Shown one piece after another: positions 1,032 to 50,795 of a DNA stretch of 53,299 nt. The DNA is from an uncultured Selenomonadales bacterium (lineage in GTDB: Bacteria > Bacillota > Negativicutes > Selenomonadales > Selenomonadaceae). Both the position numbers and the translations under genes were made by a program. Under the pieces are notes generated by a model. That model saw only the letters and a list, made by a program, of their open reading frames with translations, was not told where the DNA came from and ran no database searches. The stretch's first letter is position 1. Every line of letters begins with the position of its first letter. Location: positions 1-53,299 of the forward strand of contig CAMKFB010000008.1 in the NCBI GenBank assembly GCA_946411735.1, given 5' to 3'.

Positions 1032-2168
1032 CTACGACAGCCGATTTTTGAAATCATTATACTCGAACGCGCGCACGATCTCGAAATTATTTCGGCTGTC
1101 GACGGCGACGATCGCCGGGAGGTTCATACCGTTGAAGGTGTTGTTCTTGACCATAGTGTAGATCGCCATGTCCTCGAACACGAGCCGATCGCCCTCCGCC
1201 AACGGTCGATCGAAGGAGTATTCGCCGATTACATCGCCCGCAAGGCACGTCGCTCCGCCCAAGCGATAATCGAACGCCTTCGCTCCGCGCGGAGCCGCTC
1301 CGACAATCGACGGACGATACGGCATCTCGATCACGTCGGGCATGTGGCAGGCGGCGCTCGCATCGATGATCACATTGCTCACGCCGTCAATCGGAGGCTG
1401 CACCTCGAGTACCGTCGAGACCAACACACCCGCGTTGAGCGCAATCGCCTCGCCCGGCTCGAGATAAATCTCCACATCATATTTGTTCTTCAACCGATCG
1501 ATGATCCGCCTCAACCGATCGATATCGTAATCCGCGCGGGTGATGTGATGCCCGCCGCCCAAGTTGAGCCACTTCATTCGCCCGAGCCAAGCACCGAATT
1601 TTTTCTCGAGCGCCTCAACCGTCTCGTCAAGCGCGTCGGAGTTTTGCTCGCAAAGCGTGTGAATGTGCAGCCCGTCAATCAAATCGAGCAATCCGCGCGG
1701 AGCCGCCGCAAATTCTTTCAAGCGAACGCCAAGTCTCGACGTCGGTGAGCATGGATCGTAAATTGCATGAGTTTGCGTCGAGTGCTCGGGATTGATCCGA
1801 AGTCCGATCGAGCAATGCCACACACTATAAAAAAATTTTTCGAGCTGATTAAAGGAGTTGAAGACGACGTGATCGCAAATCTCGGCAATCCGCTCGATCT
1901 CATCCGCGCGGAAGGCGGGGCTGTAGACGTGATTTTCGCCGTGGAAATACTCCGCCGCCAAGAGCGCCTCGTTGAGCCCCGACGACGCCGTCCCCGACAA
2001 ATACTTTTCGATCAGCGGATAAAAGCGGAACATCGAAAAGCACTTTTGCGCCAACAAAATTTTTATCCCCGCCGACCTTTGCAGCTCCAATAATATCCTG
2101 AGGTTCGCCTCTAATTTTTCCTCGAAGATCACATAAGCCGGCGTCGGCACTCGATCGAGCACAGTCAT
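1032..2168 (-). CDS. nspC: Carboxynorspermidine/carboxyspermidine decarboxylase
   Basis: This is a 378-residue fold-III PLP decarboxylase of the alanine-racemase/ornithine-decarboxylase type. It should remove the carboxyl group from carboxynorspermidine or carboxyspermidine to give the triamine. The PLP lysine is expected at Lys42 in LLAQKCFS. HIHTLCE, the glycine loop LNLGGGHH, EPGEA and the C-terminal DASAACHMPDV segment all match NspC. Length is normal for the family. The ATG at 2168 overlaps the upstream dehydrogenase stop as TGATG, so the two are probably translationally coupled. Together they form the two-step alternative polyamine pathway that starts from aspartate semialdehyde plus a diamine. 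Which triamine is made cannot be told from sequence. Confidence 0.95.
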   Translation of the reverse strand: MTVLDRVPTPAYVIFEEKLEANLRILLELQRSAGIKILLAQKCFSMFRFYPLIEKYLSGTASSGLNEALLAAEYFHGENHVYSPAFRADEIERIAEICDHVVFNSFNQLEKFFYSVWHCSIGLRINPEHSTQTHAIYDPCSPTSRLGVRLKEFAAAPRGLLDLIDGLHIHTLCEQNSDALDETVEALEKKFGAWLGRMKWLNLGGGHHITRADYDIDRLRRIIDRLKNKYDVEIYLEPGEAIALNAGVLVSTVLEVQPPIDGVSNVIIDASAACHMPDVIEMPYRPSIVGAAPRGAKAFDYRLGGATCLAGDVIGEYSFDRPLAEGDRLVFEDMAIYTMVKNNTFNGMNLPAIVAVDSRNNFEIVRAFEYNDFKNRLS

Positions 2169-3370
2169 CAGTCAACGAGCTCCGGCGCAAGGTTTTCGAT
2201 CCACGGCAGCCCGAATTTGTTGAGCGCCTCCATAAACGGATCGGGATCAAATTCTTCCACGTTGCGCACGCCCTCCAACGACCATCGACCGTCCACCAAC
2301 AGCATCGCTCCGATCATCGCCGGCACGCCCGTCGTGTAGCTCACCGCTTGCGAACCGACCTCCCGATAGCACGCCTCGTGGTCGCACACATTATATACAT
2401 AGTAATCCTTCGGTCGACCGTCCTTCGTCCCGCGCACTATGCAGCCGATATTCGTCTTGCCCTTCGTCCGCGAGCCAAGCGATGCCGGATTCGGCAGCAC
2501 CGCCTTCAAAAAATGCAGCGGCACTATCTTTTGCCCGTTGAAGTCGATCGGCTTGATGCTCGTCATTCCCACATTCTCCAAGCACTTGAGATGCGTCAGA
2601 TAGCTTTGACCGAACGTCATAAAAAATCTGAGCCGCCGCACGTTTGGAATATTTTTCGCCAGCGACTCAAGCTCCTCATGATAGATCAAATACATATCTT
2701 TCGCGCCGACCTCGGGAAAATCATAGACGCGCTTGATCTCCATCGGCTTCGTCCGCACCCAATCTCCGTTCTCGTAATACTCGCCGTCGGCGGTCACCTC
2801 ACGAATGTTGATCTCGGGATTGAAATTCGTCGCGAACGGATAACCATGGTCGCCGCCGTTGCAATCAAGAATGTCAATCGTGTCGATCGCGTCAAAGTGA
2901 TGCTTCAACGCGTGAGCGCAGAACACGCCCGTCACGCCCGGGTCGAAGCCGCAACCCAACAGCGCCGTCAAGCCCGCCGCGCGGAAGCGCTCGTCATACG
3001 CCCACTGATATTTGTACTCGAAATACGGATTGCCCTCTGACTCGTAGTTGGCGGTGTCGAGATAATTCACGCCCGTCGCAAGGCACGCCTCCATGATGTT
3101 GAGATCATGATAGGGCAACGCAAGATTCATCACCACGTCCGGCTTCGTTCGCTCGATCAGCGCAATGATCTCCTCGATGTGATCGGCGTCGACCCGATCG
3201 GTCGTCACCGCCGTCGGCGACTTGCCTTCGAGTCGCGCCTTGAGCTCGTCGCATTTCGATCGCGTCCGACTCGCTATGCAAATTTCGTCGAACACCGCGG
3301 AGTTCTCCACGCACTTATTCGCCGCCACACTTGCCACGCCGCCGCTGCCGATGATCAGAGCTTTTGCCAC
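2168..3370 (-). CDS. Carboxynorspermidine/carboxyspermidine dehydrogenase (saccharopine dehydrogenase family)
   Basis: The protein has about 400 residues. It starts with a Rossmann dinucleotide motif (ALIIGSGGVASVAA) and has the saccharopine-dehydrogenase family body with LGCGFDPGVTGVFCAH. The enzyme reductively condenses aspartate semialdehyde with putrescine or diaminopropane, using NADPH, to give the carboxylated triamine that NspC decarboxylates. I chose the GTG at 3370 because GGGGAGG lies nine bases before it. The in-frame ATG at 3394 lies upstream of that ribosome site and would add MGAGRNGK. The gene is first in the pair and overlaps nspC by one base. Some genomes call this gene lys1-like, but lysine metabolism is unlikely given the partner. 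Confidence 0.92.
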   Translation of the reverse strand: MAKALIIGSGGVASVAANKCVENSAVFDEICIASRTRSKCDELKARLEGKSPTAVTTDRVDADHIEEIIALIERTKPDVVMNLALPYHDLNIMEACLATGVNYLDTANYESEGNPYFEYKYQWAYDERFRAAGLTALLGCGFDPGVTGVFCAHALKHHFDAIDTIDILDCNGGDHGYPFATNFNPEINIREVTADGEYYENGDWVRTKPMEIKRVYDFPEVGAKDMYLIYHEELESLAKNIPNVRRLRFFMTFGQSYLTHLKCLENVGMTSIKPIDFNGQKIVPLHFLKAVLPNPASLGSRTKGKTNIGCIVRGTKDGRPKDYYVYNVCDHEACYREVGSQAVSYTTGVPAMIGAMLLVDGRWSLEGVRNVEEFDPDPFMEALNKFGLPWIENLAPELVD

Positions 3371-3515: not shown

Positions 3516-4442
3516 ATGGAATTCAAACACGCGAGCGTCATGCTCAACGAAGCGATTGAAAAGTTGATAACCGAAAAGGGCGGCACGTATGTGGACGGCA
3601 CGCTCGGCGGCGCGGGTCATGCGCAGGCGATCCTTTCGAGGCTCGACGGCGGCAGGCTGATCGGCATCGATCGGGATCAAGACGCCATCGACGCCGCCTC
3701 CGAACGATTGAGCGGACAAAACGTCAGTTTGGTGCGCGATAATTTCGGTCGGCTCGATCAGATCCTCGACGACCTCTCAATTGAGCGGATCGACGGCATG
3801 TTGCTCGACCTCGGTGTCTCCTCTCATCAGATCGACGACGCTCCGCGCGGATTTTCTTATATGCACGACGCGCCCCTCGATATGCGCATGGATACTCGGC
3901 AGGCGTTGACTGCCTTCGATGTGGTCAACGGTTACTCCGAAGAACGGCTTGTAAATATTTTCAGCGGCTACGGCGAAGAAAGATTCTCCAAACGGATTGC
4001 GAAGGCGATTGTCGAGCGCCGTCGGGAGAAAAAAATAGAGACCACCGCTCAATTGGTCGATGTGATCAAGAGGGCGGCGCCGGTCATCAAAGGCGGCGGG
4101 CATCCCGCCAAGCGGGTTTTTCAAGCGATTCGCATCGAAGTCAACGACGAGCTCGGCGTGATCGAAAGCGCCATCCGCGCGGCGGTCAATCGATTGAACG
4201 TCGGAGGGAGGATTGTGGTGATCACGTTTCATTCGCTCGAGGATCGCATCGTCAAATCGACTTTCAAAGAACTCGCCACCGATTGCATTTGTCCGAAGAA
4301 CATCCCGATTTGCGTCTGCGGACATCGGGCTCAAATAAAAATTCTCGGACGCGCCCTTACGCCGACAGCCCAAGAAATTGAACGCAACTCTCGCGCCAAG
4401 AGCGCCAAGCTCCGCGCGGCGGAAAAATTACAGTCTGTTTAG
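3516..4442 (+). CDS. rsmH: 16S rRNA (cytosine1402-N4)-methyltransferase RsmH (MraW)
   Basis: This 308-residue SAM-dependent methyltransferase modifies C1402 in the decoding centre of 16S rRNA. The SAM site is DGTLGGAGHAQ near residue 28. Further family blocks are LLDLGVSSHQID, RGFSYMHDAPLDMRMD, GGGHPAKRVFQAIRIEVNDEL and the C-terminal FHSLEDRIVK. Length is typical. AAGGTG precedes the ATG by six bases. It is followed at once by ftsL, the usual order in the division and cell-wall (dcw) cluster. However, mraZ is absent upstream and no ftsI or mur genes follow, so this is a detached two-gene piece of that cluster ending in a strong hairpin. Confidence 0.97.
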   Translation: MEFKHASVMLNEAIEKLITEKGGTYVDGTLGGAGHAQAILSRLDGGRLIGIDRDQDAIDAASERLSGQNVSLVRDNFGRLDQILDDLSIERIDGMLLDLGVSSHQIDDAPRGFSYMHDAPLDMRMDTRQALTAFDVVNGYSEERLVNIFSGYGEERFSKRIAKAIVERRREKKIETTAQLVDVIKRAAPVIKGGGHPAKRVFQAIRIEVNDELGVIESAIRAAVNRLNVGGRIVVITFHSLEDRIVKSTFKELATDCICPKNIPICVCGHRAQIKILGRALTPTAQEIERNSRAKSAKLRAAEKLQSV

Positions 4443-5595: not shown

Positions 5596-6483
5596 TTAAC
5601 AGTCAAACTCGGGATGAGCCTCATAAAAATTTTTGACGATCGAAACAAACTCCGCAACAATCGAGCGACGCTCGCCCGCGTGAGTGCACAACACGCATGA
5701 GATCGTCTCATCGCAATCGAACGGCGTCCACGCAAACTCGCCGTTGTGATCGTTCAAAAAGCCCGGCGCAAGACACACTCCCTTGTGCGCGGCAATGTTC
5801 GTCAGCGTCGATTCGCGATCGTTGCTGTTGAAGTGCTCAAGATTCAGCCGTTCGAGCACGCGCTTCTGTACCGCGCGCAGCTCCGGTTGAGAGCCGCCGC
5901 CCACCATCAATACCCGACCGTTGAGATCATCGACGGTTATTTTTGATTTCGACGCCAACGGGTCGTCGCGCTCGGTGATCAGATATATCCGACTGTCGAA
6001 CAGCGGATGTATTTTTATGTCCGGCACGCCGACCATATCCTGCTCGCGCGCAAACAATATGTCCTGCTCTCCGCGCAAAAACTTTTCGCAACTGCCCAGT
6101 GCAATGAATTCCGGAGTGATGAGGACGCCGGGGTGTTTTGATTCAAACCGTTCGATCGCTCGAGGCAAAAAATAAATCGCCGAGCGCATCGGCAATCCGA
6201 TCGTCAAGCCCGAGCGATATCGACTGCTGAAGTTTTGCCCCTGCTCGATCGCGCGCTTATACTCCGCGCGGAGATTGAACAGATTGGTGCAAAACTGTCG
6301 ACCGGCGGGCGTGAGCACCGCCCCGCGCCCCGACCGTTGAAATATCTCGAATCCGATCTCCTCTTCGATCGATTTGATGTGGTAAGTCAGCGTCGGTTGC
6401 GACAGAAATAAATTTTCCGCCGCGCGGTTGAAGTTGAGCACCTTCGCCAGCTCCAGCACGCAATCAATTTGTCTTGAATTCAT
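5596..6483 (-). CDS. LysR-family transcriptional regulator
   Basis: The protein has 295 residues with an N-terminal winged helix-turn-helix at about residues 1-60 (NFNRAAENLFLSQPTLTYHIKSIEEEIG), followed by a two-lobed periplasmic-binding-like effector domain. It lies between an exported nitroreductase (12 bases upstream) and azlC (overlapping), all on one strand. LysR proteins usually regulate neighbours and themselves. Co-transcription rather than divergent placement is less typical, so its target cannot be fixed from position alone. The effector is unknown; a branched-chain amino acid or a redox signal is possible given the neighbours. The ribosome site before the ATG is weak. Confidence 0.93.
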   Translation of the reverse strand: MNSRQIDCVLELAKVLNFNRAAENLFLSQPTLTYHIKSIEEEIGFEIFQRSGRGAVLTPAGRQFCTNLFNLRAEYKRAIEQGQNFSSRYRSGLTIGLPMRSAIYFLPRAIERFESKHPGVLITPEFIALGSCEKFLRGEQDILFAREQDMVGVPDIKIHPLFDSRIYLITERDDPLASKSKITVDDLNGRVLMVGGGSQPELRAVQKRVLERLNLEHFNSNDRESTLTNIAAHKGVCLAPGFLNDHNGEFAWTPFDCDETISCVLCTHAGERRSIVAEFVSIVKNFYEAHPEFDC

Positions 6484-11652: not shown

Positions 11653-12542
11653 TCTCCAAGCCCGAAGCCGCGGATTGCGCCGACGGAGTTTCGCCAATCC
11701 TTTTTGACCTTCACCCACAAATCCAAATACACTTTCGAGCCGAGCAACATCTCAATCTCGGGGCGCGACAACTCTCCAACCTTTTTGAGCATCGCGCCCT
11801 TCTTGCCGATCAAAATGCCCTTCTGCGACTCGCGCTCGACGTAGATGTACGCTCGAATGTAATGATCGCCGTTCGAACGCGTCGTGATCTCCTCGATGTC
11901 GACCGCGATCGAATGCGGAACCTCGTCCTCCGTCAAGTGCAGCAGCTTCTCCCGAATCAGCTCCGCCACGATCAACCGCTCCGGCTGATCCGTCACCATA
12001 TCATCGGGATAATACTTCGGACCTTCGGGCAAATGCTTTTTGAGCTCCTCGATCAGCGCCTCAAGGTTGGTGCCGTCGGCGGCACTGATCGGGACGATCG
12101 CCGCAAAATTTCTCCGCGCGGAGTAATCGGCGATGATCGGCAAAACTTTTTCGCGCTCGATAAGATCGAGTTTGTTGACGACCAGGATCACCGGTCGCTC
12201 CGTCGCCTTGAGCCGCTCGAGAATATATTTTTCGCCGCCGCCGAATTTTTCACTCGCGTCGATCACAAAAAGGATCACATCGACCTCTTTGAGCGTGCCT
12301 TCCGCCGCGCGGAGCATGTATTCGCCGAGCTTGAATTTGGGCTTATGAATGCCCGGCGTGTCGAGGAAAATGACCTGCGCGTCGTCGAGCGTCAAGATAC
12401 ATTGGATGCGCGAACGCGTCGTCTGCGGCTTGTCGGATGTGATCGCGATCTTTTGTCCGATCAGCCGATTGATCAGCGTCGATTTGCCCACGTTCGGGCG
12501 ACCGATCACCGCCGCAAAGCCCGATTTAAAATCTCCCATCAT
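11649..12542 (-). CDS. era: GTPase Era, 16S rRNA maturation factor
   Basis: This 297-residue protein has a Ras-like GTPase domain: G1 GRPNVGKST, G3 LDTPGIHKPK, G4 NKLD. A C-terminal KH domain carries GKKGAMLKKVG. Era binds the 3' end of 16S rRNA and assists 30S assembly. Two ATG codons are adjacent at the start (12542 and 12539), and both overlap the universal-stress stop; no distinct ribosome site is seen, so translation is probably coupled. Era is often next to yqfG (ybeY) and recO in Firmicutes. Here it is flanked by a UspA gene and a DUF502 gene instead. Confidence 0.98.
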   Translation of the reverse strand: MMGDFKSGFAAVIGRPNVGKSTLINRLIGQKIAITSDKPQTTRSRIQCILTLDDAQVIFLDTPGIHKPKFKLGEYMLRAAEGTLKEVDVILFVIDASEKFGGGEKYILERLKATERPVILVVNKLDLIEREKVLPIIADYSARRNFAAIVPISAADGTNLEALIEELKKHLPEGPKYYPDDMVTDQPERLIVAELIREKLLHLTEDEVPHSIAVDIEEITTRSNGDHYIRAYIYVERESQKGILIGKKGAMLKKVGELSRPEIEMLLGSKVYLDLWVKVKKDWRNSVGAIRGFGLGE

Positions 12543-13430: not shown

Positions 13431-13439
13431 TTTTTGGGA

Positions 13440-27729: not shown

Positions 27730-27793
27730 ACATAAGGGCTATCGCCCCTAGACCCCAATGAGACGGTCGGCTCCGCGCGGAGCGAAAAAATCA

Positions 27794-34218: not shown

Positions 34219-35128
34219 GTTTGACATCGCGGGGCGCTACAAAATTTGGTTTATGATATCGCTGCTGGTAATTGTGCCGGGGCTGATTTCGATGGCGATG
34301 CGCGGGCTGAATTTCGGCATCGACTTCACGGGCGGGACGATCATCGATCTCAAATTCGAGCAGCCCGTTCAAATTCCGCAGATTCGAGATTCGCTCCGCG
34401 CCTACGGACTGGAGGGCTCGACGATCCAACTGTCGGGCGAAACGAGCGGCGTAGAGTCGTCGACGAACGTAATGATTCGGACGGTCGATCTCGAGGAGAA
34501 CGATCGCAAAGCGTTAATGGCGTCGCTCCGCGCGGATGTGGGCGCGTACGAGGTGATGCGCTAAGAAAAAGTCGGCGCGACCATCGGCGGCGAGCTGATC
34601 ATGAACGCGGTGATGGCGCTGGTAATTTCGTGGGGCATCATCATTCTCTACGTGGCGTATCGATTCGAGTTCCGCTTCGGCATCGCGGCGGTGCTGGCAC
34701 TGGTGCACGACATTCTGGTCGTGATGGCGTTCTTCTCGTTCACGCAACGGCAGGTCGACTCGTCGTTCGTGGCGGCGCTGCTGACGATCGTCGGCTATTC
34801 GATCAACGACACGATCGTCATTTTCGATCGCATTCGAGAGAATTTGAAGCTGCATTTTCGACGGGGCGGCGACATAAAGGAGCTTGTCAACCGCTCGATC
34901 TATCAGACGCTGACGCGGTCGCTGTTCACGGTTTTCACGGTTCTGTTCACGACCTTCGCGCTCTACTTCTTCGGCGGCGAGACCACAAAAGATTTCTCGT
35001 TCGCGCTGATGGTCGGCTTCTTCAGCGGCTGCTATTCGTCGATATTCATCGCCGGACCGTTATGGATGGTGTTGCGCAACGCGGCGGAGGCTAAGCGCCA
35101 TCAAGCCGTCGAGCCGAAAACCGAATGA
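34211..35128 (+). pseudogene. secF: Protein translocase subunit SecF, interrupted by an in-frame TAA
   Basis: The reading frame encodes a complete SecF of about 305 residues but for TAA at codon 118 (34562-34564), with no frame change. The first part holds helix 1 and LNFGIDFTGGTIIDLKF. The second part has the remaining helices with VLALVHDILVVMAFFSF and TIVGYSINDTIVIFDRIREN. At the stop the context reads VMR-stop-EKVGATIGGEL. SecF proteins often have E-E-K-V or similar here, so a GAA to TAA change is likely. An ATG at 34601 could restart without a good ribosome site. Either a sequencing error, a recent mutation, two separate chains or read-through explains it. Confidence 0.85.
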
Positions 35129-35137: not shown

Positions 35138-37465
35138 ATGCTCAACAATTGGACATTATATGACGACGATAATATGATTATAAACTCGATCGCGGCGGAG
35201 CTCGGGATCAATCGCCTGACTGCCGCCGTGCTCAATCATCGCGGCATCAAAGACGCCGATTCCGCGCGGAAATTTCTCGATCCCGAGCGCGCTCAACCGT
35301 TTTACGATCCGTTTTCGATGAAGGGCATGAGTGAGGCGGTCGAGCGGATCGCGCGCGCCGTTGAAAATCGCGAGCGCATTGTCGTTTACGGCGACTACGA
35401 TGTCGACGGGATGACAGCGTCGTCGATTATGGTTCGCGCGTTGCGACGGCATGGCGCGGCGGTCAACGCCTACATTCCGAGCCGACAGACGGAGGGCTAC
35501 GGGCTCAATGTCGATGCGCTGAGGAAGCTGACATACGAGTGCGAGTTGGTGATCACGGTCGATTGCGGCATTTCAAACGACGCGGAGATTGCCGCTGTCA
35601 AAGATTCGCTCGACGTGATCGTGACGGATCACCATCTGCCGAGCGGCGCGGTGACGAATGCGATTGCCGTGCTCGATCCGCATCAGCCCGATTGTGCTTA
35701 TCCCGAGAAAAATCTTTGCGGCGCTGGCGTGGCTTTCAAGTTGTGTCAAGCGCTCGACTTGCGGATCAACGGGAGCGATTATCGAGATTATGTCGATAAC
35801 ATTGAGCTTGCCGCGCTCGGGACGGTTGCCGATCTGGTGCCGCTGACGGGAGAAAATCGCAAGATTGTTCGGCTCGGGCTGACGCGCATGAGTAAGACCG
35901 CCAACGTCGGGCTGAAAGAATTGATCACGGTTGCGGGGCTCGACGGAAAAAAACTTAACGCCGGTCATTGCGGCTTCAGTCTGGGACCGCGCTTGAATGC
36001 GGTCGGGCGGCTGGAGAGCGCGCTGATCGGGCTGGAGCTTTTGACGACGGATAATCCTGTCAAGGCGCGGCAGATTGCTTTGACGCTCGATCAGGAAAAT
36101 AATCGACGCAAGGATATCGAGACGAAAATGCTTGCGGAGGCGGACGGAGAATTTCAACGCCGACGGGAGGAAAGCGGCGGCGGGCTGAGCTCGATCGTGA
36201 TCGCGCGGGAGGGCTGGCATCGCGGCGTGATCGGTCTGACGGCGTCAAAACTGTTGGAGCGATATTATCTTCCGACGATCGTGATCGCGCTCGACGACGA
36301 GCTTGCAGTCGGCTCGTGTCGGAGTATTGCGGCGCTGCACATGAAAGAGGCGCTCGATCAGTTTGCGGATCGATTTTTGCATTACGGAGGGCATGCGGCG
36401 GCGGCGGGCTTCACGCTCAAGCGCGAGGACGCGGAGAATTTTGCGCGGGACTTCGACGAATATGTTCGACGAAAGTTGCGCGACGAAGATTTTATGCCGA
36501 CTCAAAAATTGGACGCGCTGATCCATCCGGCGGAAATGACGGAGGAGCTGGCGGAGGAATTTGAGCGGCTGGCGCCATTCGGGATCGGCAATCCGCATCC
36601 GAAGTTCGGGTGGCGCGGGGTGCGCGGGGTTGAAGTGCGGCTGATGGGCTCGAGCTTCCAACATTTGAGCTTCGAAACTTTTCTCCCGCCCGCCGGTCCC
36701 ATAAAGGCGCCGCCCTTTAAATCCGACGGGGCAACGAATATTTTTATCCCACCCGCCCACTCAATCTCTGCGGAAACCGAGCTTTCTGCCGTCGACGTTC
36801 CCCCGCCGTCGCGCGGCATCGACGAGATTGACGAGGACGCCGCCGCTTTCGCCGATTTCGACGCCCGCCCCGACTTCGTTGATGAAGACCTCGACGCCCG
36901 GCCCGACTTCGCCGAAGAGGATTTCGACGCCCCCATCGATTTCTTTGACGATGACGATGTTCCGCTCGACAGCCCCGCCGTCATGCCCGTTAAAAAAATC
37001 CGCGCCGTCGCATGGAACTTCGGCGCGCTTGCCGATCTCGTCGAGCACGAGCCCGTCGATATCACTTTCGAGCCGTCCATCAACGAGTTCAATGACATCC
37101 GCTCCGTCCAATGCATGATCTCTACCCTCGAGCCCTCCGGCGACGCCGACCAATTTCCCGATCGCCCCGCACTCGCGCGCATCTATAAATTTCTCCGCGC
37201 TCAGTCGAGGGAAGCCGCGTTCCGCTCCTTCAATCTTTGCAAGCTCGCCGCCGATTTCCGTCGCTCGAATGTGGCGTTCGACGATCAAAGGCTCAACTCC
37301 ATCTACACCTTCGCCGCCGCCGTCAAAGTTTTTTCGGAGATCGGGCTGATTCATTTCGACGCCGACGGAAAAAATTTCTTCATGCCCGTACCCAATAAGG
37401 CTTTCGACCTCAACCGCTCGCGTCTTTTCAAACTCAATTCCGAAGGTGATGCCCATGAACGATAA
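35138..37465 (+). CDS. recJ: Single-stranded-DNA exonuclease RecJ with an inserted acidic segment
   Basis: This 775-residue 5'-3' exonuclease acts in recombination and mismatch repair. The DHH phosphoesterase part has YGDYDVDGMTASS (Asp86, Asp88, Asp90) and VTDHHLPSG (Asp164-His-His166). The DHHA1 part has GGHAAAAGFTLK, followed by an OB domain. The OB domain is split: after SSFQHLSFE (to residue 513) come about 105 unusual residues, then KKIRAVAWNFG (from 619) resumes. The insert begins with dispersed-repeat DNA and continues with acidic repeats DARPDFVDED/DARPDFAEED. A C-terminal domain with ALARIYKFLR follows. GAGGAA is six bases before the ATG. It overlaps relA by 11 bases. Confidence 0.96.
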   Translation: MLNNWTLYDDDNMIINSIAAELGINRLTAAVLNHRGIKDADSARKFLDPERAQPFYDPFSMKGMSEAVERIARAVENRERIVVYGDYDVDGMTASSIMVRALRRHGAAVNAYIPSRQTEGYGLNVDALRKLTYECELVITVDCGISNDAEIAAVKDSLDVIVTDHHLPSGAVTNAIAVLDPHQPDCAYPEKNLCGAGVAFKLCQALDLRINGSDYRDYVDNIELAALGTVADLVPLTGENRKIVRLGLTRMSKTANVGLKELITVAGLDGKKLNAGHCGFSLGPRLNAVGRLESALIGLELLTTDNPVKARQIALTLDQENNRRKDIETKMLAEADGEFQRRREESGGGLSSIVIAREGWHRGVIGLTASKLLERYYLPTIVIALDDELAVGSCRSIAALHMKEALDQFADRFLHYGGHAAAAGFTLKREDAENFARDFDEYVRRKLRDEDFMPTQKLDALIHPAEMTEELAEEFERLAPFGIGNPHPKFGWRGVRGVEVRLMGSSFQHLSFETFLPPAGPIKAPPFKSDGATNIFIPPAHSISAETELSAVDVPPPSRGIDEIDEDAAAFADFDARPDFVDEDLDARPDFAEEDFDAPIDFFDDDDVPLDSPAVMPVKKIRAVAWNFGALADLVEHEPVDITFEPSINEFNDIRSVQCMISTLEPSGDADQFPDRPALARIYKFLRAQSREAAFRSFNLCKLAADFRRSNVAFDDQRLNSIYTFAAAVKVFSEIGLIHFDADGKNFFMPVPNKAFDLNRSRLFKLNSEGDAHER
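36679..36758 (+). repeat. Two dispersed repeat arms inside the recJ coding region
   Basis: Arms TTTTCTCCCGCCCGCC (36679-36694) and TTTTTATCCCACCCGCC (36741-36757) lie in direct orientation and in frame. Between them is AAAGGCGCCGCC, also shared with 18743 and 52885. They encode LPPAG and IPPAHS instead of stopping translation. Confidence 0.8.
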
Positions 37466-39676: not shown

Positions 39677-39697
39677 GCGCCGACGGCGCTTTTTTTA
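39677..39697. terminator. Short terminator after relA
   Basis: GCGCC-GAC-GGCGC is followed by TTTTTTTATTT. The stem is only five bases but G-C only. It lies at the 3' end of the convergent gene too. Confidence 0.65.
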
Positions 39698-40264
39698 TTT
39701 GAACACTCTCGGTTTGCTCCGCGCGGAGTCTTTGATGAGCGGTCGGGCGATCGTGTCAACGGTGTCGTCGATGGCGTCCTCGATCACCTTCAGCGGCGGG
39801 CGTTCATCCTTCTTTGCGATGTTGCTCCGCCCGAGTCGATTCTTGTTATAAAGGACTTTGCCGTCGGACAATCGGATCACCTTGACGTTGACCGAGATTG
39901 CAAACACCGGTTTCGTCGCGTGCACCCAGCCCAGCGCGCCCAATGACGACCCGCTCAACGGCTCGACGAACAACGACGCGAACGAGCCGCCCAATGAGAT
40001 CGTCGTTGCCAGCCCGTTGTTGACCAGCTTGCCGATGCCCATGTTCAATACAAACACTTCGATTTTATACTCCGGCGCGTCGGTGAACTCGAATGAGCCG
40101 TCCAATCTCCCGCGCAGTTGATCGTTGAGCAAAGCGATCAGCTCGGGGCTGTAAAGTTTGACGTCGTCGCGCAGGCTCAACTCGATCGTCGGCGCCGCGC
40201 CCGCCGTCGAGAACGCCGTCGAAAACAGCAGCGCCATCATCATCGTCAGTAAAAATTTTTTCAT
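39695..40264 (-). CDS. Exported protein of unknown function
   Basis: The 189-residue protein has a clear signal peptide (MKKFLLTMMMALLFSTAFSTAGAA), with cleavage after AGA-A or nearby. The mature part is mixed alpha/beta, with PELIALLNDQLRGRL, then YKIEVFVLNMGIGKL, a hydrophobic Gly/Ser-rich stretch (TTISLGGSFASLFVEPLSGSSLGALG), and AISVNVKVIRLSDGKVLY. The pattern resembles lipoprotein-like envelope proteins with a CsgG-type core, but I cannot assign it. No lipobox is seen. It is a single gene convergent with relA, with a basic C-terminal tail. Confidence 0.8.
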   Translation of the reverse strand: MKKFLLTMMMALLFSTAFSTAGAAPTIELSLRDDVKLYSPELIALLNDQLRGRLDGSFEFTDAPEYKIEVFVLNMGIGKLVNNGLATTISLGGSFASLFVEPLSGSSLGALGWVHATKPVFAISVNVKVIRLSDGKVLYNKNRLGRSNIAKKDERPPLKVIEDAIDDTVDTIARPLIKDSARSKPRVFK

Positions 40265-41831: not shown

Positions 41832-42743
41832 GTGCCGATAAAAATACCTAATAATTTGCCGGCGGCGCATGTGCTCGAGGGCGAAAACATTTTTGTGATG
41901 GACGCCGACCGCGCTTACAGTCAAGACATTCGACCGCTGCGGATTTTAATCCTGAATCTGATGCCGATAAAGCACGTCACGGAGACTCAACTGCTTCGCC
42001 TGCTCGGCAACACGCCTCTGCAGGTCGAGGTCGACTTCATCTACACCAAGTCTTACATCCCGACGCATACCTCGCAAGATTACTTGACGGAGTTCTACGG
42101 CACCTTCGAGGACGTTCGCAAAAAAAAATACGACGGCTTCATCATAACCGGCGCGCCCGTCGAGCTGCTCGAGTATGAAGACGTCATCTATTGGAGCGAA
42201 CTGGGCGAGATCATGGATTGGAGCCGCACGAATGTCTACTCGACCTTCCACATCTGTTGGGGGGCGCAAGCGGCGTTGTATTATTATTACGGCGTGCCGA
42301 AGTACATTCTCGACGAAAAAATTTCGGGCGTGTTTCGACATCATCTGTGCGTCAAGCACGAAAAATTATTCCGCGGCTTCGACGATAAATTCTTCGTCCC
42401 GCACTCACGACACACTCAATTGCTCCGCGCGGATATCGAGAAGGTGCCGGAGCTGACGATCCTGTCGGAGGGGGAGGCGGGGGTGTACGCGATCGCAAAT
42501 CTCGAGCGGCGGCAATTTTTCATCACGGGGCATGCGGAGTATGATCCGCTGACGCTGAAGGCGGAGTACGAGCGCGATCTGAAGGCGGGGCTGAATCCGC
42601 ACGTGCCGGACAATTATTATCCGAACGACGATCCGACGCGCGAGCCGATCGTCCGATGGCGGAGCGTGGCGCACTTGCTGTTCGCGAACTGGCTCAACTA
42701 CTATGTGTATCAAGAGACGCCGTACGAGATCGACCGCATTTAA
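41832..42743 (+). CDS. metA: Homoserine O-acetyltransferase (MetA family)
   Basis: The 303-residue enzyme activates homoserine for methionine synthesis. The catalytic Cys142 lies in [15 protein letters not shown], the partner HRHLC-like region in [13 protein letters not shown], and the late Glu in GHAEYD. Residue 111 is Glu ([11 protein letters not shown]). In this family Glu111 goes with acetyl-CoA and Gly111 with succinyl-CoA, so acetyl transfer is predicted even though annotation often says succinyl. The start is a GTG at 41832; GGAA lies four bases upstream, a weak site, preceded by short TTAGGAA repeats. Confidence 0.95.
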
Positions 42744-43397: not shown

Positions 43398-44572
43398 GAG
43401 CGGCGGTCGTCATTCCAATTTATAAACCGTTCCGCGCGGATTTAAATTGGTACGAGCCGATCTCCTTGCGTCGATGCTTAGAAGTCCTCGGACATCATCC
43501 GATCGTGTTCGTCGCGCCGGAGGGGCGGCAGTTCGATTATCTTCCGTCGGAGATCGATTACACTGTCGAGACGTTCGATCCGATTTACTTCAGCAATATC
43601 AACGGCTACAATGCGCTGATGTTGCGCCCGGATTTTTATGAGCGCTTCCGTCGATTCGATTACATTCTGCTCTATCAGCTCGACACGTTTGTGTTCTCGG
43701 ATCGTCTGGAGGAGTTTTTTCGACTCGGATATGATTACATCGGCGCGCCGTGGTCGCTCGGCATCGGAAGGTGTAACGGCATACATCTCTGCAGCGGTAA
43801 CGGCGGATTTTCTTTGCGTCGAGTCAGGGCTTGCATCGACGTGCTCAAAAATAATGCCGCGCTCGTGAGCACATCGCGTATGCCGGAGGATACGATCTTT
43901 GCATACTTGGGCAAGACAAAGCCGGACGAATTTAAAATCGCGCCGATCGGGACGGCAAGTCGATTTGCCGTCGAGTGTTTGCCGGAGCGGTACTGTCGAA
44001 AAAACGAAAATGTACTGCCGTTCGGTTGTCACGGTTGGCAAAAATACAGTCGGTCGTTCTATGTTCGAGTGTTTGAAGAGTGTGGTTATGACCTTGCGCC
44101 GTTCGAGCATTTGATGGACGATCAAGATTTCAAACTGCAATACGAAACCTTGAAATCGTTGATGCGTTGGCGGCTGTTTCATCGCTTCCACGAGGGTTAT
44201 TCGATGATGCGATATCTGCCGTCGGACGAAACGTTTTATGCATTTGCCGCTTCAAATGAAGAAGGCGCCTTGGTACAGCGCCTTTATGATGAAGGATTGC
44301 GGATTATCAATCTCGATAACATCCCGTTCCTCGACAGCGACGATCAGATTCGAGCGGTGGCGGAAGTGCTGAAATTGATCGACGTGCGCGGGCTGTTGAT
44401 CTCAATGAAGGACGACTCCAATATGGCGGATAAACTGATCGGGCTCGGAGGGGTGAAATACGGTCAGCATTTTATCTCATATTGGCGCGAGAGTTGGCGA
44501 CAGTCGTCGGCATTGCTACGTCGGCTCAGCCGTCCGACCGTCAAGCGTCTGATCAATCGCGGGCTCGTTTGA
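43394..44572 (+). CDS. DUF5672 glycosyltransferase-like protein
   Basis: The protein has 392 residues. It has a DUF5672-type core: AVVIPIYKP at the start, YILLYQLDTFVF, the metal-site-like GYDYIGAPW, then SGNGGFSLRR and MPEDTIFAYLG. These blocks mark a GT-A-like sugar transferase family common in polysaccharide and flagellin-modification loci. After about residue 240 there is an extra C-terminal part of unknown type (LVQRLYDEGLRIINLDNIPFL). No membrane segment. It overlaps the exported-protein gene before it, and its 3' end overlaps the convergent HNH gene by 20 bases. Confidence 0.85.
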   Translation: MRAAVVIPIYKPFRADLNWYEPISLRRCLEVLGHHPIVFVAPEGRQFDYLPSEIDYTVETFDPIYFSNINGYNALMLRPDFYERFRRFDYILLYQLDTFVFSDRLEEFFRLGYDYIGAPWSLGIGRCNGIHLCSGNGGFSLRRVRACIDVLKNNAALVSTSRMPEDTIFAYLGKTKPDEFKIAPIGTASRFAVECLPERYCRKNENVLPFGCHGWQKYSRSFYVRVFEECGYDLAPFEHLMDDQDFKLQYETLKSLMRWRLFHRFHEGYSMMRYLPSDETFYAFAASNEEGALVQRLYDEGLRIINLDNIPFLDSDDQIRAVAEVLKLIDVRGLLISMKDDSNMADKLIGLGGVKYGQHFISYWRESWRQSSALLRRLSRPTVKRLINRGLV

Positions 44573-44952: not shown

Positions 44953-46608
44953 TCACGCGCGACAGATGCGCGCCTCCAACGGTTTCAACACCGACGGCTG
45001 AGGATTGTGTTCGCTGCCGAGCAGTACTTCCAACGTTGAAAATCGCTTCGGCAGTTTCGCCTCTGCCGTCGAGAAGTTTACCAACGTGATCAATTTTTTG
45101 TCCCCGAGTGCACGTTCGAACGCAAAAATCTTTTCGTCGTCGCTCAACAGCTCTTCGTATGTGCCGCTCAACAATTCCTCGTGTGACAGTCGAAATTCCG
45201 TCAGCGCTCGATACCATTCGAGCACCGGATTCAATTCCGTCGCCGCCCAAGGGAGCGGGATTCGCGCGTTGTCTCGACTGCGCGCTTGGACGCATTCGAG
45301 CGCCTCTTCCGCCGTCAAACCTTCCTTCAGCGCGAACTCGTATTGCGCGCGCGATTGAATGTCCTCGTATTGATCGATCGACGTACGCGCCACGTTCGTC
45401 ATCCCGAGCTCTTGTCCTTCGTAGATGAACGGCGTCCCGCGCATCGTCAGCAGCACCGTCGACAGCGCTCGCGCCGCCTTTACAGGATCCGCGCCCTTGG
45501 CGAAATACTGATTCACTCCGCGCGGCTGATCGTGATTCTCGAAAAAGATCGGGTACCAACCGTTGAGTGCCGTCGCCTTTTGACTCGCGCTCAACGCCTT
45601 TTTCAGTTCCGTCAACTTCCAAGCGCGCGGTCGACACCACACCTCATTTTCGATCCCGAGATTCAAATGGCTGAACTCGAACAGCATATCGAACACGCCG
45701 TTCGAGCCGACCCAATCCTGCAGCTCCGACGGCTTGACGCTGTTCGCTTCGCCGACCGTCACGATATCACGACCGTCGAAACACTCCCGCTTGAACTCGC
45801 GCAGATAATCCAATATGCCCGCCGTATTCGCCGTCATCGCGTGAATGTTGACCATGCCGTCGGCGCCGTCGGGCGTGCCGTCGAGGAACGTCGGCGGCTT
45901 TTTGATGTAAACGATCGCGTCGATCCGAAATCCGCCCACGCCCCGATCGAGCCAGTTCCGCGCGGAGTCGTAGAGCGCGCGACGGACGGCGGGATTCTCC
46001 CAATTGAGATCGGGCTGCTCCTTCGCAAAGGTATGCAGATAATATTGCCCGCGCTCCTCGCACCACTGCCACGCACTCCCGCCGAAGATCGCGCGCCAAT
46101 TCGTCGGAGGCTTGCCGTCGATCGCATCACGCCAAATGTACCAATCCTCCTTCGCGTTCGTCCGACTCGACTTCGACTCGACGAACCACGGATGTTGATC
46201 GGAGCTGTGATTATACACCAAATCCATGATGATGCGGATGTTGCGCGCACGCGCCTCCGCAATCAACTCGTCGAAATCCGCCGGCGTCCCGTAGCGCGGA
46301 TCGATCGTCGAGTAATCGGAAATGTCGTAGCCGTTGTCGACCATCGGCGAAGGATAAATCGGCGTGATCCAAATCGCCCCGACATTGAGGCTCTTAAGGT
46401 AGTCGAGACGCTCGATAATCCCGCGCAAATCGCCCGTGCCGTCGCCGTCGGCATCGTTGAAACTCTTGGCGTAGATCTGATAGAAGATCGTCCGTTGCCA
46501 CCACTTTTGATTAGTCGCCGCCATCGCGTCACCTCCGAGCATCGACGGAGCGATCCACAAGCCCGCAGTCAATGCGAGGGAGCCCTTGATAAAATCGCGC
46601 CGATTCAT
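44953..46608 (-). CDS. Tat-exported GH13 oligo-1,6-glucosidase-like enzyme
   Basis: This 551-residue glycoside hydrolase starts with a twin-arginine signal, NRRDFIKG, and a hydrophobic stretch with a cleavage site near DAMA. The GH13 barrel runs from KWWQRTIFYQIYAKSF with MDLVYNHSSDQHPWF, nucleophile Asp230 in GGFRIDAI, acid Glu287 in VGEANSV and Asp360 in FENHDQPR. The ordering fits the oligo-1,6-glucosidase/alpha-glucosidase subgroup, which is usually cytosolic, so Tat export is unusual. Likely substrates are isomaltose-type or short alpha-glucans. An ATG with AGGTGA upstream starts the gene. It is followed by the HNH gene and preceded by a TSCPD gene. Confidence 0.93.
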   Translation of the reverse strand: MNRRDFIKGSLALTAGLWIAPSMLGGDAMAATNQKWWQRTIFYQIYAKSFNDADGDGTGDLRGIIERLDYLKSLNVGAIWITPIYPSPMVDNGYDISDYSTIDPRYGTPADFDELIAEARARNIRIIMDLVYNHSSDQHPWFVESKSSRTNAKEDWYIWRDAIDGKPPTNWRAIFGGSAWQWCEERGQYYLHTFAKEQPDLNWENPAVRRALYDSARNWLDRGVGGFRIDAIVYIKKPPTFLDGTPDGADGMVNIHAMTANTAGILDYLREFKRECFDGRDIVTVGEANSVKPSELQDWVGSNGVFDMLFEFSHLNLGIENEVWCRPRAWKLTELKKALSASQKATALNGWYPIFFENHDQPRGVNQYFAKGADPVKAARALSTVLLTMRGTPFIYEGQELGMTNVARTSIDQYEDIQSRAQYEFALKEGLTAEEALECVQARSRDNARIPLPWAATELNPVLEWYRALTEFRLSHEELLSGTYEELLSDDEKIFAFERALGDKKLITLVNFSTAEAKLPKRFSTLEVLLGSEHNPQPSVLKPLEARICRA

Positions 46609-46921: not shown

Positions 46922-46979
46922 ACACGAAGACAGTCGCCTTCGACCACAAAACGACTGCTGCCGCAAACTCCGCGCGGAG

Positions 46980-48344: not shown

Positions 48345-49929
48345 TATAGGCAGCCTCAATGTCGGACATATACGCGGCGGCATCCATCAACGGCGAACTT
48401 TCCATCATCGATCGCAACGTTCGATGATATTGCTCGATCCGATCGACATCGCCCGCCAATTCGATCGCCCTTCGGACATAATCCTCCGCGTCCGTCGCGC
48501 AAAGCTCCGCCGCGCCGACATTCGTCACGAAACTCAATCCGAAACGCGAGCCGTGCCGATCGCCCGCTCGAGTGATCACCGGCACGCCCATGTAAAGCGC
48601 GTCGCAAGTCGTCCCGCCGCCAACGTACGGATAACTGTCGAGCATCACATCAACCGCGCGCATCTTTCTAAGGTAGCCGTCAAGGTTGGAGCCGCCCTCG
48701 ATCGTGATCCTTTGAAGATCGATCGACGCCGCGCGGAGCCTCTCGAGCGCAATCTCCTTTACGTATTTCGAGTTGAAGACCGTGCTCTTGATCAAAAGCC
48801 GCGCGCTCGGAACCGCCGCCATGATCTCCGACCACAATCGAAGCTGATCGGTCGTCACCTTGGAAAAATTATTGAACGAGCCGAACGTGATAAAGCCATT
48901 CGATCGGCACGGCGCCTCACCGATTTCGATCTCGACGTCGGGTCGACGATAGCAGAAATGCATGTGCGGCAGACGAATGATCTTCTCGGTAAAAAATTTT
49001 TCGCCGCGCTTGTCCTCGACAGTATATCGATCGACAAAAAAATAATCAACCGTCCGAAGCCCCGTCGAGCCGATCCAACCAATCCCGCTGATTTGAATCG
49101 GCGCCGGCTTGTGAGCCAAGATCGGCAGACAATTGTGCGCCGTGTGACCGCTCAGGTCGACCAAAATATCAAGCTCGTCCTCAAAAATTTTTTGCGACGC
49201 AACGTTGGGAGCGTCGCCGAAAATATTCCTCCAACCGTCAGCGTTCCGCTTCAACTGTTCGCTGAAGGCATCCTCCTTGCACGCCGCATAGCCGATCACT
49301 TCAAACCGATCCCGATCGTGATGCGTGAAGAAGGGCGCCGCAAAATATCCCGCAACGTGCGATCGAAAGTCGGGCGAAATATATCCGACGCGAATTTTGT
49401 CATGTCGATGCGGCTTGTGTTTGAAGCGCTTGACGCCGGCATAAAGTTTGTCGTAATTCTTGATCGCCGAAAAAATTTTTTGCGACGTAACCTCCGTCGG
49501 CGACATCCGATGCAACGCAAACAAATAATTGCTGTAATCCTCCCGCCGATCGGCAATCAGCTCCGCGCGGAGCGTCTCATCGTCGATCGAACGAAGATCA
49601 ACGCGGCTGCTCATTAGATATTGCTCCGCCGCCCGATCGATCGCTCCGATCTTGTCATAGGCCATCGCAAGGATATTTCGGAGCATCATCTCATCCTTCG
49701 GTTGGAGCCCGCGCCGCGCAAGCGCCGCCTCGCCGTCGACGATCACATTCCGATAATCCTCGTAAATGTCGAAGAGTCGCACCTTCAACAGCAATATCTT
49801 GGCGTCGATCGGAAATTCTTTCATCATCTGCTCGACGGTCGGGATCGCCTTGTCGAGTTGGCGGCTCGCAATGAACATCTCCGCCATCTGCTCAAAAAAT
49901 TGTCGGCGGTTCTCAAATTTGATCTCCAT
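48331..49929 (-). CDS. TPR-containing O-GlcNAc-transferase-like (GT41) protein
   Basis: This 532-residue protein has a tetratricopeptide-like N-terminal part to about residue 110 (QMAEMFIASRQLDKAIPTVEQMM) and a GT41/SPINDLY-type transferase from about 165: IRVGYISPDFRSHVAGYF, DILVDLSGHTAHNCL, FGSFNNFSKVT, TTCDALYMGVPVIT and GSRFGLSFVTNVG. Bacterial members glycosylate surface proteins or flagellins. With the DUF5672 protein and the FliB-like protein in the same window, flagellin modification is possible, but no flagellin gene is seen. The ATG at 49929 overlaps the DUF1385 stop (TGATG), with GGAGGG upstream. Confidence 0.92.
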   Translation of the reverse strand: MEIKFENRRQFFEQMAEMFIASRQLDKAIPTVEQMMKEFPIDAKILLLKVRLFDIYEDYRNVIVDGEAALARRGLQPKDEMMLRNILAMAYDKIGAIDRAAEQYLMSSRVDLRSIDDETLRAELIADRREDYSNYLFALHRMSPTEVTSQKIFSAIKNYDKLYAGVKRFKHKPHRHDKIRVGYISPDFRSHVAGYFAAPFFTHHDRDRFEVIGYAACKEDAFSEQLKRNADGWRNIFGDAPNVASQKIFEDELDILVDLSGHTAHNCLPILAHKPAPIQISGIGWIGSTGLRTVDYFFVDRYTVEDKRGEKFFTEKIIRLPHMHFCYRRPDVEIEIGEAPCRSNGFITFGSFNNFSKVTTDQLRLWSEIMAAVPSARLLIKSTVFNSKYVKEIALERLRAASIDLQRITIEGGSNLDGYLRKMRAVDVMLDSYPYVGGGTTCDALYMGVPVITRAGDRHGSRFGLSFVTNVGAAELCATDAEDYVRRAIELAGDVDRIEQYHRTLRSMMESSPLMDAAAYMSDIEAAYNELR

Positions 49930-50795
49930 CAATCCGATCCCTCCGTCGGAAGAACCGCGTTGAGCGACGCAATCGCTACCTCGACCATCTCGTCGTCGGG
50001 CGGGCGCGTCGTCAAGTATTGCAGCCACAGCCCCGGCGCTATCGCCGCGCGGATTAAAACATTCTCCGAGCGCGCCGCCAATCGAATGATCTCGTAAGAG
50101 ATGCCCGCCACCACCGGCAGCAAAATTATTCGGCTCGTGATCCTCAACCATAAATCCGGCCAACCGAGGAACGCGAATACGAATATCGAAACCAGCATGA
50201 CGATCAGCAAAAACGTCGTGCCGCAACGCGGGTGCAGCCGCGGAAATTTCTGTACGTTCTCGACCGTCAGCGGCTGATTCGCCTCGTAACAGAATATCGT
50301 TTTATGCTCCGCGCCGTGGTATTGAAACACGCGCCGTATGTCCTTCATCTGCGAAATCGCCAGCAGATAGCCCAAAAAGATTATCAGTCGGAGCGCGCCC
50401 TCCATCAGGTTCAAGAAGAACGGGTCTTCGGTGATCGAATGAAACAGCTTCGCCGAGCCGGTCGGGATTGCGATGAACAGCACCGACGCCAGCACCAACG
50501 CCAGCGCGATCGTCAGCGCCATTTCCCGATCGGTGAGCTGCTCGTCCTCTTCGCCCGCCATCCGCGCGGAGTATGACAGCGATCGCATCCCCAGCACGAG
50601 CGACTCGTAGAGCGTGACCGAACCGCGCAGAAACGGCTTCTTCAATATCGGATAACGATCGGCGATCGAGTTGACCGGCTTGACTTCGATTGCGATGTGA
50701 CCGTCGGGCTCGCGCACCGCCGTCGCGGTTTTTCCGAAGCCGCGCATCATCACGCCCTCGATCACCGCTTGACCGCCGACGATTGGTTTGTCCAT
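49929..50795 (-). CDS. DUF1385 membrane protein (YqhQ-like)
   Basis: The 288-residue protein opens with GGQAVIEGVMMRG, the family hallmark, and has several membrane segments: ALTIALALVLASVLFIAIP, LMEGALRLIIFLGYLLA, and LLIVMLVSIFVFAFLG. The middle has YHGAEHKTIFCYE and LHPRCGTTF, conserved with a possible metal-binding His/Cys set. DUF1385 proteins are often next to prfA, rpmE or hemK in Firmicutes; that context is absent here. Function unknown. It is divergent from lonC across a 100-base gap with a palindromic operator-like sequence. Confidence 0.93.
   Translation of the reverse strand: MDKPIVGGQAVIEGVMMRGFGKTATAVREPDGHIAIEVKPVNSIADRYPILKKPFLRGSVTLYESLVLGMRSLSYSARMAGEEDEQLTDREMALTIALALVLASVLFIAIPTGSAKLFHSITEDPFFLNLMEGALRLIIFLGYLLAISQMKDIRRVFQYHGAEHKTIFCYEANQPLTVENVQKFPRLHPRCGTTFLLIVMLVSIFVFAFLGWPDLWLRITSRIILLPVVAGISYEIIRLAARSENVLIRAAIAPGLWLQYLTTRPPDDEMVEVAIASLNAVLPTEGSD

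What the first reader, a model, noticed from the sequence alone, without database searches (positions are those of the whole stretch)
1284..50570. A ten-base palindrome, TCCGCGCGGA, is iterated across the window like cyanobacterial HIP1
Reading by eye I find exact copies starting at 1284, 1903, 3842, 6263, 12113, 15928, 17109, 20890, 21676, 26578, 26853, 27772, 29359, 30607, 34527, 35261, 39718, 42424, 43431, 45957, 46969, 49562 and 50561, and there may be more. At this base composition one 10-mer should occur well below once in 53 kb. Copies lie in coding DNA in several frames (reading SAR, LRAD/LRAE or PRG) and in gaps (27772, 46969), so codon use alone does not explain them. Near-copies with one change are also common. 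HIP1 (GCGATCGC) in cyanobacteria is the only close parallel I know; I know of no such report for this group. Possible roles are a methylation or repair target, a chromosome-structure mark, or a mutational by-product.
Basis: partly seen in the sequence, partly recalled or inferred. Interest (0 to 1): 0.85.

Follow-up and report, generated by a model that had tools for sequence, protein, structure and literature searches.

The report
Genome-wide repeated palindrome outside cyanobacteria
Two related rumen bacteria have peppered their chromosomes with hundreds of spaced-out copies of one short palindrome, much as many cyanobacteria have with a different one; the copies are kept at the level of the DNA, and what reads them is unknown.

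Summary
TCCGCGCGGA occurs 24 times in the window (shuffle mean 0.53) and 841 times in the 2.42 Mb genome, a rumen Selenomonadaceae MAG (reversed control 5). One sister species has 592 copies; the other 64 same-genus genomes have 0-25, and no other of 763 distinct genomes searched exceeds 36. The CCGCGCGG core is nearly all-or-none, with a palindromic extension towards GCTCCGCGCGGAGC in all three reading frames and between genes. Synonymous-codon shuffles give 9-10 coding copies against 129 observed, and the motif biases the codon that follows. Of 13 sister copies, 11 are intact at the orthologous place, against 16.9% of GC-matched 10-mers, although their flanks are 69% identical. Copies avoid one another (about 200-300 bp in one species, 700 bp in the other), and three phage-gene-bearing stretches lack them. 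It behaves like cyanobacterial HIP1: a substitution-born, DNA-level, spacing-limited mark. No cognate methyltransferase was found: none of three tested tracks the motif. I favour a site read genome-wide by an unidentified symmetric DNA-binding or DNA-modifying protein; a DNA-uptake sequence is the main rival. New variant of a known kind.

The parts
1284..1293 (.). palindrome copy in carboxynorspermidine decarboxylase gene (1032-2168 -), frame xxT CCG CGC GGA (APRG)
1903..1912 (.). palindrome copy, same gene, FRAD frame; 211 bp from 1692, the smallest spacing in the window
3842..3851 (.). palindrome copy in ORF 3516-4442 +, APRG
6263..6272 (.). palindrome copy in ORF 5596-6483 -, LRAE; intact at the orthologous place in the sister species
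12113..12122 (.). palindrome copy in ORF 11649-12542 -, SARR
15928..15937 (.). palindrome copy in ORF 15731-17326 +, HPRG
17109..17118 (.). palindrome copy in ORF 15731-17326 +, VRAE
20890..20899 (.). palindrome copy in ORF 20738-21391 -, SART
21676..21685 (.). palindrome copy outside called genes (gene call uncertain here)
26578..26587 (.). palindrome copy in ORF 25860-26912 +, LRAE
26853..26862 (.). palindrome copy in ORF 25860-26912 +, SARS
27772..27781 (.). palindrome copy in a 118-bp gap between convergent genes
29359..29368 (.). palindrome copy in ORF 28697-29737 -, SARR
30607..30616 (.). palindrome copy in ORF 30302-31225 +, PPRG
34527..34536 (.). palindrome copy in a 117-aa conserved ORF 34211-34564 +, LRAD; the 7 congeners printed have 2-8 mismatches here
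35261..35270 (.). palindrome copy in recJ (35138-37465 +), SARK; intact in the sister species, 3-8 mismatches in the 6 congeners printed
39718..39727 (.). palindrome copy just after relA/spoT (37446-39674 +); placed in ORF 39695-40264 - by an uncertain gene call
42424..42433 (.). palindrome copy in ORF 41832-42743 +, LRAD; the sister has GACGAGAGGA (RRED)
43431..43440 (.). palindrome copy in ORF 43394-44572 +, FRAD; intact in the sister
45957..45966 (.). palindrome copy in a glycoside-hydrolase-like gene (44953-46608 -), SARN; the sister keeps the core
46969..46978 (.). intergenic palindrome copy beside the MATE transporter gene (46980-48383 -)
49562..49571 (.). palindrome copy in ORF 48331-50226 - as called (another long ORF overlaps on the + strand); the sister has TCCGTGCGGA on the + strand
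50561..50570 (.). palindrome copy in ORF 50232-50576 + as called (gene call uncertain); the sister has TCTTCGCCGA

Best explanation
This is a genuine highly iterated palindrome (HIP) of a two-species lineage in a rumen Selenomonadaceae genus (Negativicutes), outside cyanobacteria. Shown: strong genome-wide enrichment of CCGCGCGG with a palindromic extension; a cause at DNA level that overrides codon and partly amino-acid choice; origin by substitution; retention between species beyond that of the flanks; mutual exclusion over a few hundred bp; absence from three phage-gene-bearing stretches; restriction to two of the 763 genomes searched. Inferred: the palindrome is the site of a two-fold symmetric DNA-binding or DNA-modifying protein that acts along the whole chromosome with a reach of about 0.2-1 kb, so one site per interval is useful and a second one nearby is not. 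Point mutations that create or keep a site are favoured until the chromosome is covered. The protein is not identified.
For: Enrichment: 24 in the window, 841 in the genome, 592 in the sister; 157 in 402.6 kb against 3.4 (order-4) and 12.6 (order-5 Markov). Restriction to the lineage: apart from the two, no genome above 36 in the class scan of 380 or above 26 in the phylum scan of 398 (15 genomes shared, 763 distinct). Symmetry: the outer T/A is present on both sides in 157, on one side in 107 and on neither in 22 of 286 core sites, as independent choices at p about 0.74 would give (arithmetic mine). The logo T 0.74, C 0.56, G 0.45 outward is symmetric and appears in 3 frames and in gaps. DNA level: 129 coding copies against 8.9 or 10.1 under two synonymous-codon shuffles of 100 runs each; after TCCGCGCGG the next base is A in 39 of 48, after other SAR codings in 8 of 34. 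Retention: 11 of 13 sister copies and 11 of 29 own copies intact at the orthologous place, against 1247 of 7389 GC-matched 10-mers (binomial 1.8e-7 and 0.006). Exclusion: spacings under 200 bp 2 of 259 against 18.7 expected; in the sister, spacings under 500 bp 2 of 151 against 19.8. Three stretches of 14-20 kb with phage genes carry 0 copies.
Against: No cognate protein was found. For the HpaII-like C5 and the m4C-like methyltransferase no ortholog was found in the sister, and the one solitary methyltransferase found to be shared is also in seven same-genus species with 0-5 copies. Exclusion and density selection are equally expected of an uptake-sequence drive. Density differs between the species (348 against about 204 per Mb), so no fixed spacing is kept. 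The GC-matched control does not match CpG content or codon position; gene calls are simple; the alignments cover only 73.5 kb.
Confidence: 0.5

Rival explanations
1. It is a DNA uptake sequence: transformation machinery prefers fragments that carry the motif, so the motif spreads by biased uptake and recombination (molecular drive). One copy per fragment suffices, which would space copies out.
For: Mutual exclusion, islands of retention, excess in gaps and lineage restriction fit. ComEC and pilus/T2SS-type ATPases are present; natural competence is reported for Veillonella, another Negativicutes genus (title and start of abstract in a listing). Overall one-mismatch excess is about threefold (153 against 50.6, my sums), similar to Haemophilus influenzae in Bakkali 2007 (section 5 read). 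Even spacing of such sequences was reported by Karlin as cited there, though Bakkali doubts that it is very even (passages).
Against: The motif is an exact palindrome with palindromic extension; Bakkali states that known uptake sequences are not palindromes (passages). The machinery genes are also in all 6 motif-less congeners tested, and these families match 10 of 14 (ComEC) and 14 of 14 (ATPase) control genomes, so their presence says little. One-mismatch excess here is nearly confined to the outer base.
Confidence: 0.2
2. Elhai-type by-product: a solitary cytosine methyltransferase plus methylation-directed mismatch repair favours mutations that create its site; the palindrome has no function of its own.
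For: Elhai 2015 (abstract, Results parts 1-2 of 4, Discussion parts 1-2 of 3 read) reports that every cyanobacterial genome with HIP sequences has a methyltransferase predicted to recognise some portion of them, and predicts saturation near one site per kb, which would also space sites out. The nearly all-or-none core resembles an enzyme site. One solitary methyltransferase (G000:C10) is shared with the sister at 79% identity.
Against: That enzyme is 62-67% identical in seven same-genus species with 0-5 copies, and its C-terminal part is 63-80% identical to theirs in 30-residue windows for the six aligned. The two C5 enzymes of the own genome have no close relative found in the sister: the HpaII-like one by whole-genome search, the GGCC-type one only in the fetched stretches. 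Elhai himself notes some HIP1-rich genomes without the CGATCG enzyme.
Confidence: 0.15
3. It is a passive product of codon pairs, base composition or a neighbour-blind context-dependent mutation bias.
For: LRAE, SARS and APRG peptides are enriched in the called proteins, which would raise coding counts if the peptides came first.
Against: Shuffles that keep the peptides and codon usage give 9-10 copies, not 129. Copies are as dense or denser between genes (29 of 157 in about 12% of bases). Copies exclude one another while the seven other common palindromes tested show no marked deficit. Core variants expected of a C-to-T repair bias are not depleted.
Confidence: 0.08
4. It is a Chi-like or self-recognition mark that tells chromosome from phage DNA to nucleases or CRISPR adaptation.
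For: Three phage-gene-bearing stretches of the sister MAG (54 kb) hold no exact copy and one core, while the sister sample as a whole averages 2.0 copies per 10 kb.
Against: Any slowly acquired chromosomal motif would be missing from phages; Chi sites are asymmetric (recalled; the E. coli one is listed in Bakkali). The stretches may be mis-binned.
Confidence: 0.07

Closest known systems
HIP1 (GCGATCGC) of cyanobacteria
   Same: GC-rich palindrome, hundreds per Mb, palindromic extensions, one-base deviations mostly at the ends (Elhai); spread by substitution (title of Robinson 1997 seen in a reference list); selection inferred for HIP1 (Xu 2018 as described in PMC6604393).
   Different: Different sequence and phylum; no GATC or CGATCG; restricted to two species of one genus among those searched; no cognate methyltransferase found.
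Alternate HIPs of single cyanobacteria (GGCGCC, GCsGC, rCCGGy, GGGATCCC)
   Same: Lineage-specific GC-rich over-represented palindromes that appear in one or two genomes (Elhai 2015).
   Different: GGCGCC, GCsGC and rCCGGy each coincide with a gained methyltransferase for that sequence; here three candidates were tested and none fits.
DNA uptake sequences of Pasteurellaceae and Neisseriaceae
   Same: Hundreds to about 2000 copies, more than expected outside genes, spacing called even by Karlin as cited.
   Different: Not palindromes; preferential uptake known there, untested here.

Membership tests
Highly iterated palindrome (HIP class sensu Elhai 2015) | far over-represented GC-rich palindrome, hundreds to thousands per Mb | tested here: met
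   841 in 2.418 Mb (348/Mb); the sister, 592 in 2.9 Mb (about 204/Mb), is below the 300-2700/Mb given for HIP1
Highly iterated palindrome (HIP class sensu Elhai 2015) | found in coding frames and in gaps, not explained by codons | tested here: met
Highly iterated palindrome (HIP class sensu Elhai 2015) | deviations biased to first and last bases; palindromic extensions | tested here: met
Highly iterated palindrome (HIP class sensu Elhai 2015) | arises by substitution, not insertion | tested here: met
   2 of 29 own copies and 0 of 13 sister copies gapped in alignment
Highly iterated palindrome (HIP class sensu Elhai 2015) | a methyltransferase for part of the sequence accompanies it | tested here: inconclusive
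   three methyltransferases do not track the motif; three others were not tested across relatives; both MAGs are incomplete and specificities are unknown
HIP1 proper | sequence GCGATCGC in a cyanobacterium | tested here: not met
   sequence is TCCGCGCGGA; relatives are Selenomonadaceae
DNA uptake sequence | competence machinery present | tested here: met
   ComEC and pilus/T2SS-type ATPases in 8 of 8 genomes, 6 motif-less ones included
DNA uptake sequence | non-palindromic motif | tested here: not met
   exact palindrome with symmetric extension; criterion
DNA uptake sequence | preferential uptake of motif-bearing DNA | not testable with these tools
   needs a transformation assay

The most novel reading that the evidence does not exclude
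A genome-wide addressing signal arose within one bacterial genus and spread to hundreds of sites: either the first palindromic DNA-uptake or self-recognition sequence of diderm Firmicutes, or the binding site of an unknown chromosome-organising protein whose range (0.2-0.7 kb) is written in the exclusion zone between copies. The same genus holds 64 searched species without it, so the responsible gene should be findable by comparison.
Probability: 0.35. Interest if true: 0.9.

Novelty: new variant of a known kind. Interest (0 to 1): 0.75.

Why it matters
The function of HIP1 is still unsettled (PMC6604393), partly, in my view, because it is shared by most cyanobacteria. Here the same kind of element is limited to two species within a densely sampled genus, with 64 motif-less congeners searched beside them, so its gain, its drivers and its cognate gene can be sought by comparison. 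The spacing rule and the pull on the following codon give quantitative constraints that any model, for HIP1 or for uptake sequences, must meet.

Tried and rejected
Cognate methyltransferase. Two PF00145 enzymes and six PF01555 matches were found in the own genome; two of the six lie in one gene (C10) and one is weak and below the cut-off (C20). The HpaII-like C5 enzyme (C4) has no ortholog found in the sister (best 35%) but relatives of 61-69% in nine congeners with 0-8 copies. The m4C-like enzyme (C21, nearest solved chain a cytosine-N4 methyltransferase) has no ortholog found in the sister but relatives of 68-76% in most of their length in nine congeners with 0-16 copies. The solitary enzyme at C10 is in the sister and in seven congeners with 0-5 copies. 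The C14 C5 enzyme lies beside an NgoPII-type restriction gene, which fits the near absence of GGCC, not this motif. C14, C58 and C1 were compared only with fetched stretches. Other methyltransferase families were not searched.

Insertion of a mobile 10-mer: rejected, only 2 of 29 sites are gapped. Block replacement at single sites: the 12 ungapped sites not kept in the sister differ at 1-6 bases with flanks 72% identical; no clear sign of it. Terminator role: 28 gap copies lie between same-strand (13), convergent (9) and divergent (6) genes; per base they are densest in convergent gaps (816, 597 and 458 per Mb for convergent, same-strand, divergent), so a weak tendency is not excluded. 10-, 10.5- or 11-bp phasing of spacings: none striking (largest vector 0.13 of 149 gaps). 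Other palindromes in relatives: in 80 named loci of 3-22 kb some 8-mers were enriched in single loci (for example CCTGCAGG, CGATATCG, AAAATTTT) but none was followed up.

Literature: the listings showed no report of such an element in Selenomonadaceae; (Selenomonadaceae, overrepresented, palindrom) found 0 papers, and one search listed 12 of 493 papers holding the letters, so this is not a proof of absence.
Full report
Check. The window holds 24 exact copies of TCCGCGCGGA; the 23 listed positions are right and 1692 was missed. Dinucleotide shuffles give mean 0.53, maximum 3. Among 10-mers with at least 10 counts it has the top z-score at Markov orders 3 to 5. The whole MAG (2,418,287 bases, 135 contigs, 93% complete) has 841 places; the reversed control palindrome has 5.

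Whose genome. A scan with the window's RelA/SpoT protein found rumen Selenomonadaceae MAGs among its best matches; the most similar named locus, L034 (RGIG4916, roe deer rumen), is 91% identical in that protein. Among the 80 loci returned, only L034 has more than one copy (3 in 15.7 kb). Its whole genome, G060, has 592 copies in 2.9 Mb, control 3. In a class scan of 380 genomes the own genome and G198 (592 copies, by size and counts the same as G060) stand alone: the other 64 same-genus genomes have 0-25 and the rest 0-36. A phylum scan of 398 genomes, drawn evenly, at least 80% complete, gave at most 26 apart from the own genome. The two scans share 15 genomes, 763 distinct in all.

Anatomy. 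In 402.6 kb of the own genome there are 157 copies against 3.4 (order 4) and 12.6 (order 5) expected; the core CCGCGCGG has 286 against 53.2 (order 4). Single changes inside the core sit near background (46 against 34.9), changes of the outer base do not (107 against 15.7). Outer T/A on both sides, one side, neither: 157, 107, 22 of 286, as two independent choices at 0.74 would give (sums and the 0.74 fit are mine). The symmetric extension continues as C/G 0.56 and G/C 0.45 over 285 core sites and is seen in each reading frame and in gaps; the outer T/A is strongest in gaps (0.84 and 0.87 of 38 sites).

DNA level, not protein level. With simple gene calls (313 genes; 177 with homologs in relatives, 136 by length), 128 copies are coding in frames 66/39/23 and 29 are not, in about 12% of the bases. 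Shuffling synonymous codons within genes gives 8.9 copies (maximum 15 of 100 runs); a genome-wide shuffle that keeps the next base gives 10.1 (maximum 19), against 129 observed in gene sequences. LRAE occurs 41 times against 4.7 and SARS 19 against 2.4 expected from residue frequencies. After TCCGCGCGG the next base is A in 39 of 48; after other codings of SAR in 8 of 34. The motif therefore steers the codon that follows and with it amino acids.

Evolution. Orthologous alignments of 73.5 kb (77.7% identity) hold 29 own copies: 11 intact and 16 core-kept in the sister. They hold 13 sister copies: 11 intact and 12 core-kept in the own genome. GC-matched 10-mers are identical in 1247 of 7389 (16.9%). 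Flanks of the intact copies are 69% identical. Only 2 of 29 sites are gapped. Copies without a kept core in the other species are nearly all on one side: 13 own against 1 sister copy, so the own lineage seems to have gained more, or the sister lost more. In congeners that lack the motif the places in recJ and a 117-aa ORF differ by 2-8 bases in the rows printed.

Spacing. In 767 kb of the own genome, spacings under 100 bp number 0 against 9.5 expected, under 200 bp 2 against 18.7 (259 gaps). In the sister, under 500 bp 2 against 19.8 (151 gaps). Seven other common palindromes of the own genome show no marked deficit under 200 bp. Pair counts recover beyond about 300 bp in the own genome and 700 bp in the sister, in bins of few pairs. 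Three sister stretches longer than 9 kb have at most one core per 10 kb (L141, L168, L189: 0 exact copies; 0, 1 and 0 cores). Of ten of their longer ORFs scanned, nine match phage families: terminase and portal; primase and terminase; DNA polymerase, tail and transposase.

Search for the reader of the mark. The own genome has two PF00145 enzymes and six PF01555 matches in five genes. C4 is HpaII-like by recall, its nearest solved chain by sequence is HhaI; no sister ortholog was found and it is present in motif-less congeners. C21 shows the same pattern. C10 is shared with the sister at 79% identity but is also in seven motif-less congeners, with the C-terminal part fairly conserved in the six aligned. 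C14 stands beside an NgoPII-type restriction gene. Two DPPY-type enzymes (C58, C1; sequences) would methylate adenine by recalled motif rules, and the core has no A; they were not tested across relatives. ComEC and pilus/T2SS-type ATPases occur in 8 of 8 genomes tested, with or without the motif, so uptake is possible but not indicated.

Comparison. Elhai 2015 (abstract, Results parts 1-2 of 4 and Discussion parts 1-2 of 3 read) describes HIPs as over-represented, mostly GC-rich palindromes, shows alternate HIPs in single cyanobacteria, and links them to cognate methyltransferases, while noting some HIP1-rich genomes without the CGATCG enzyme. This element meets the sequence features of that class. 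The methyltransferase link was tested in part and is inconclusive. Xu 2018 was not held; what is said of it comes from PMC6604393 passages. Bakkali 2007 (outline, passages and section 5 read) gives the uptake-sequence benchmarks.

Verdict. A highly iterated palindrome outside cyanobacteria, limited to one lineage of two species among those searched, maintained at DNA level with a spacing rule. Best guess at the mechanism: a site for a symmetric DNA-binding or DNA-modifying protein with limited reach (0.5); uptake sequence next (0.2). The protein, any modification, and uptake itself were not observed.

Noticed in passing
L081 (G000:C14:33425-37402) and genome-wide: GGCC is almost absent (O/E 0.08 own, 0.02 sister) and the own genome has a C5 methyltransferase beside an NgoPII-type restriction gene.
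   Followed up: partly
G000 and G060 samples, genome-wide: GATC is common here (O/E 1.23 and 1.35) but rare in the pooled congener loci (0.12 and 0.39), and CTCGAG likewise (2.24 and 1.39 against 0.00 and 0.04): restriction landscapes seem to differ sharply within the genus.
   Followed up: no
G000:C10:2368-3168; L133-L139: A solitary HPPY-type DNA methyltransferase gene stands beside different ORFs in different species (neighbours judged by eye from their first residues, no search), as if it moves alone.
   Followed up: partly
G060 sample (L034, L109-L123): A second interspersed repeat containing AGGCGGGCGCCC and GGCGGCTCGCCC is over-represented in the sister species.
   Followed up: no
window and genome: AAAAATTTTT is also over-represented (75 against 7.2 by order 3 in 402.6 kb), perhaps from terminators or bent DNA.
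   Followed up: no
L208:708-9425 (G000:C3): A single 2905-aa open frame fills most of a 9.96-kb stretch without any core copy in the own genome, the only listed long gap with zero cores.
   Followed up: no
window 13252-13431 +: 6S RNA, with a tRNA on the opposite strand nearby.
   Followed up: no
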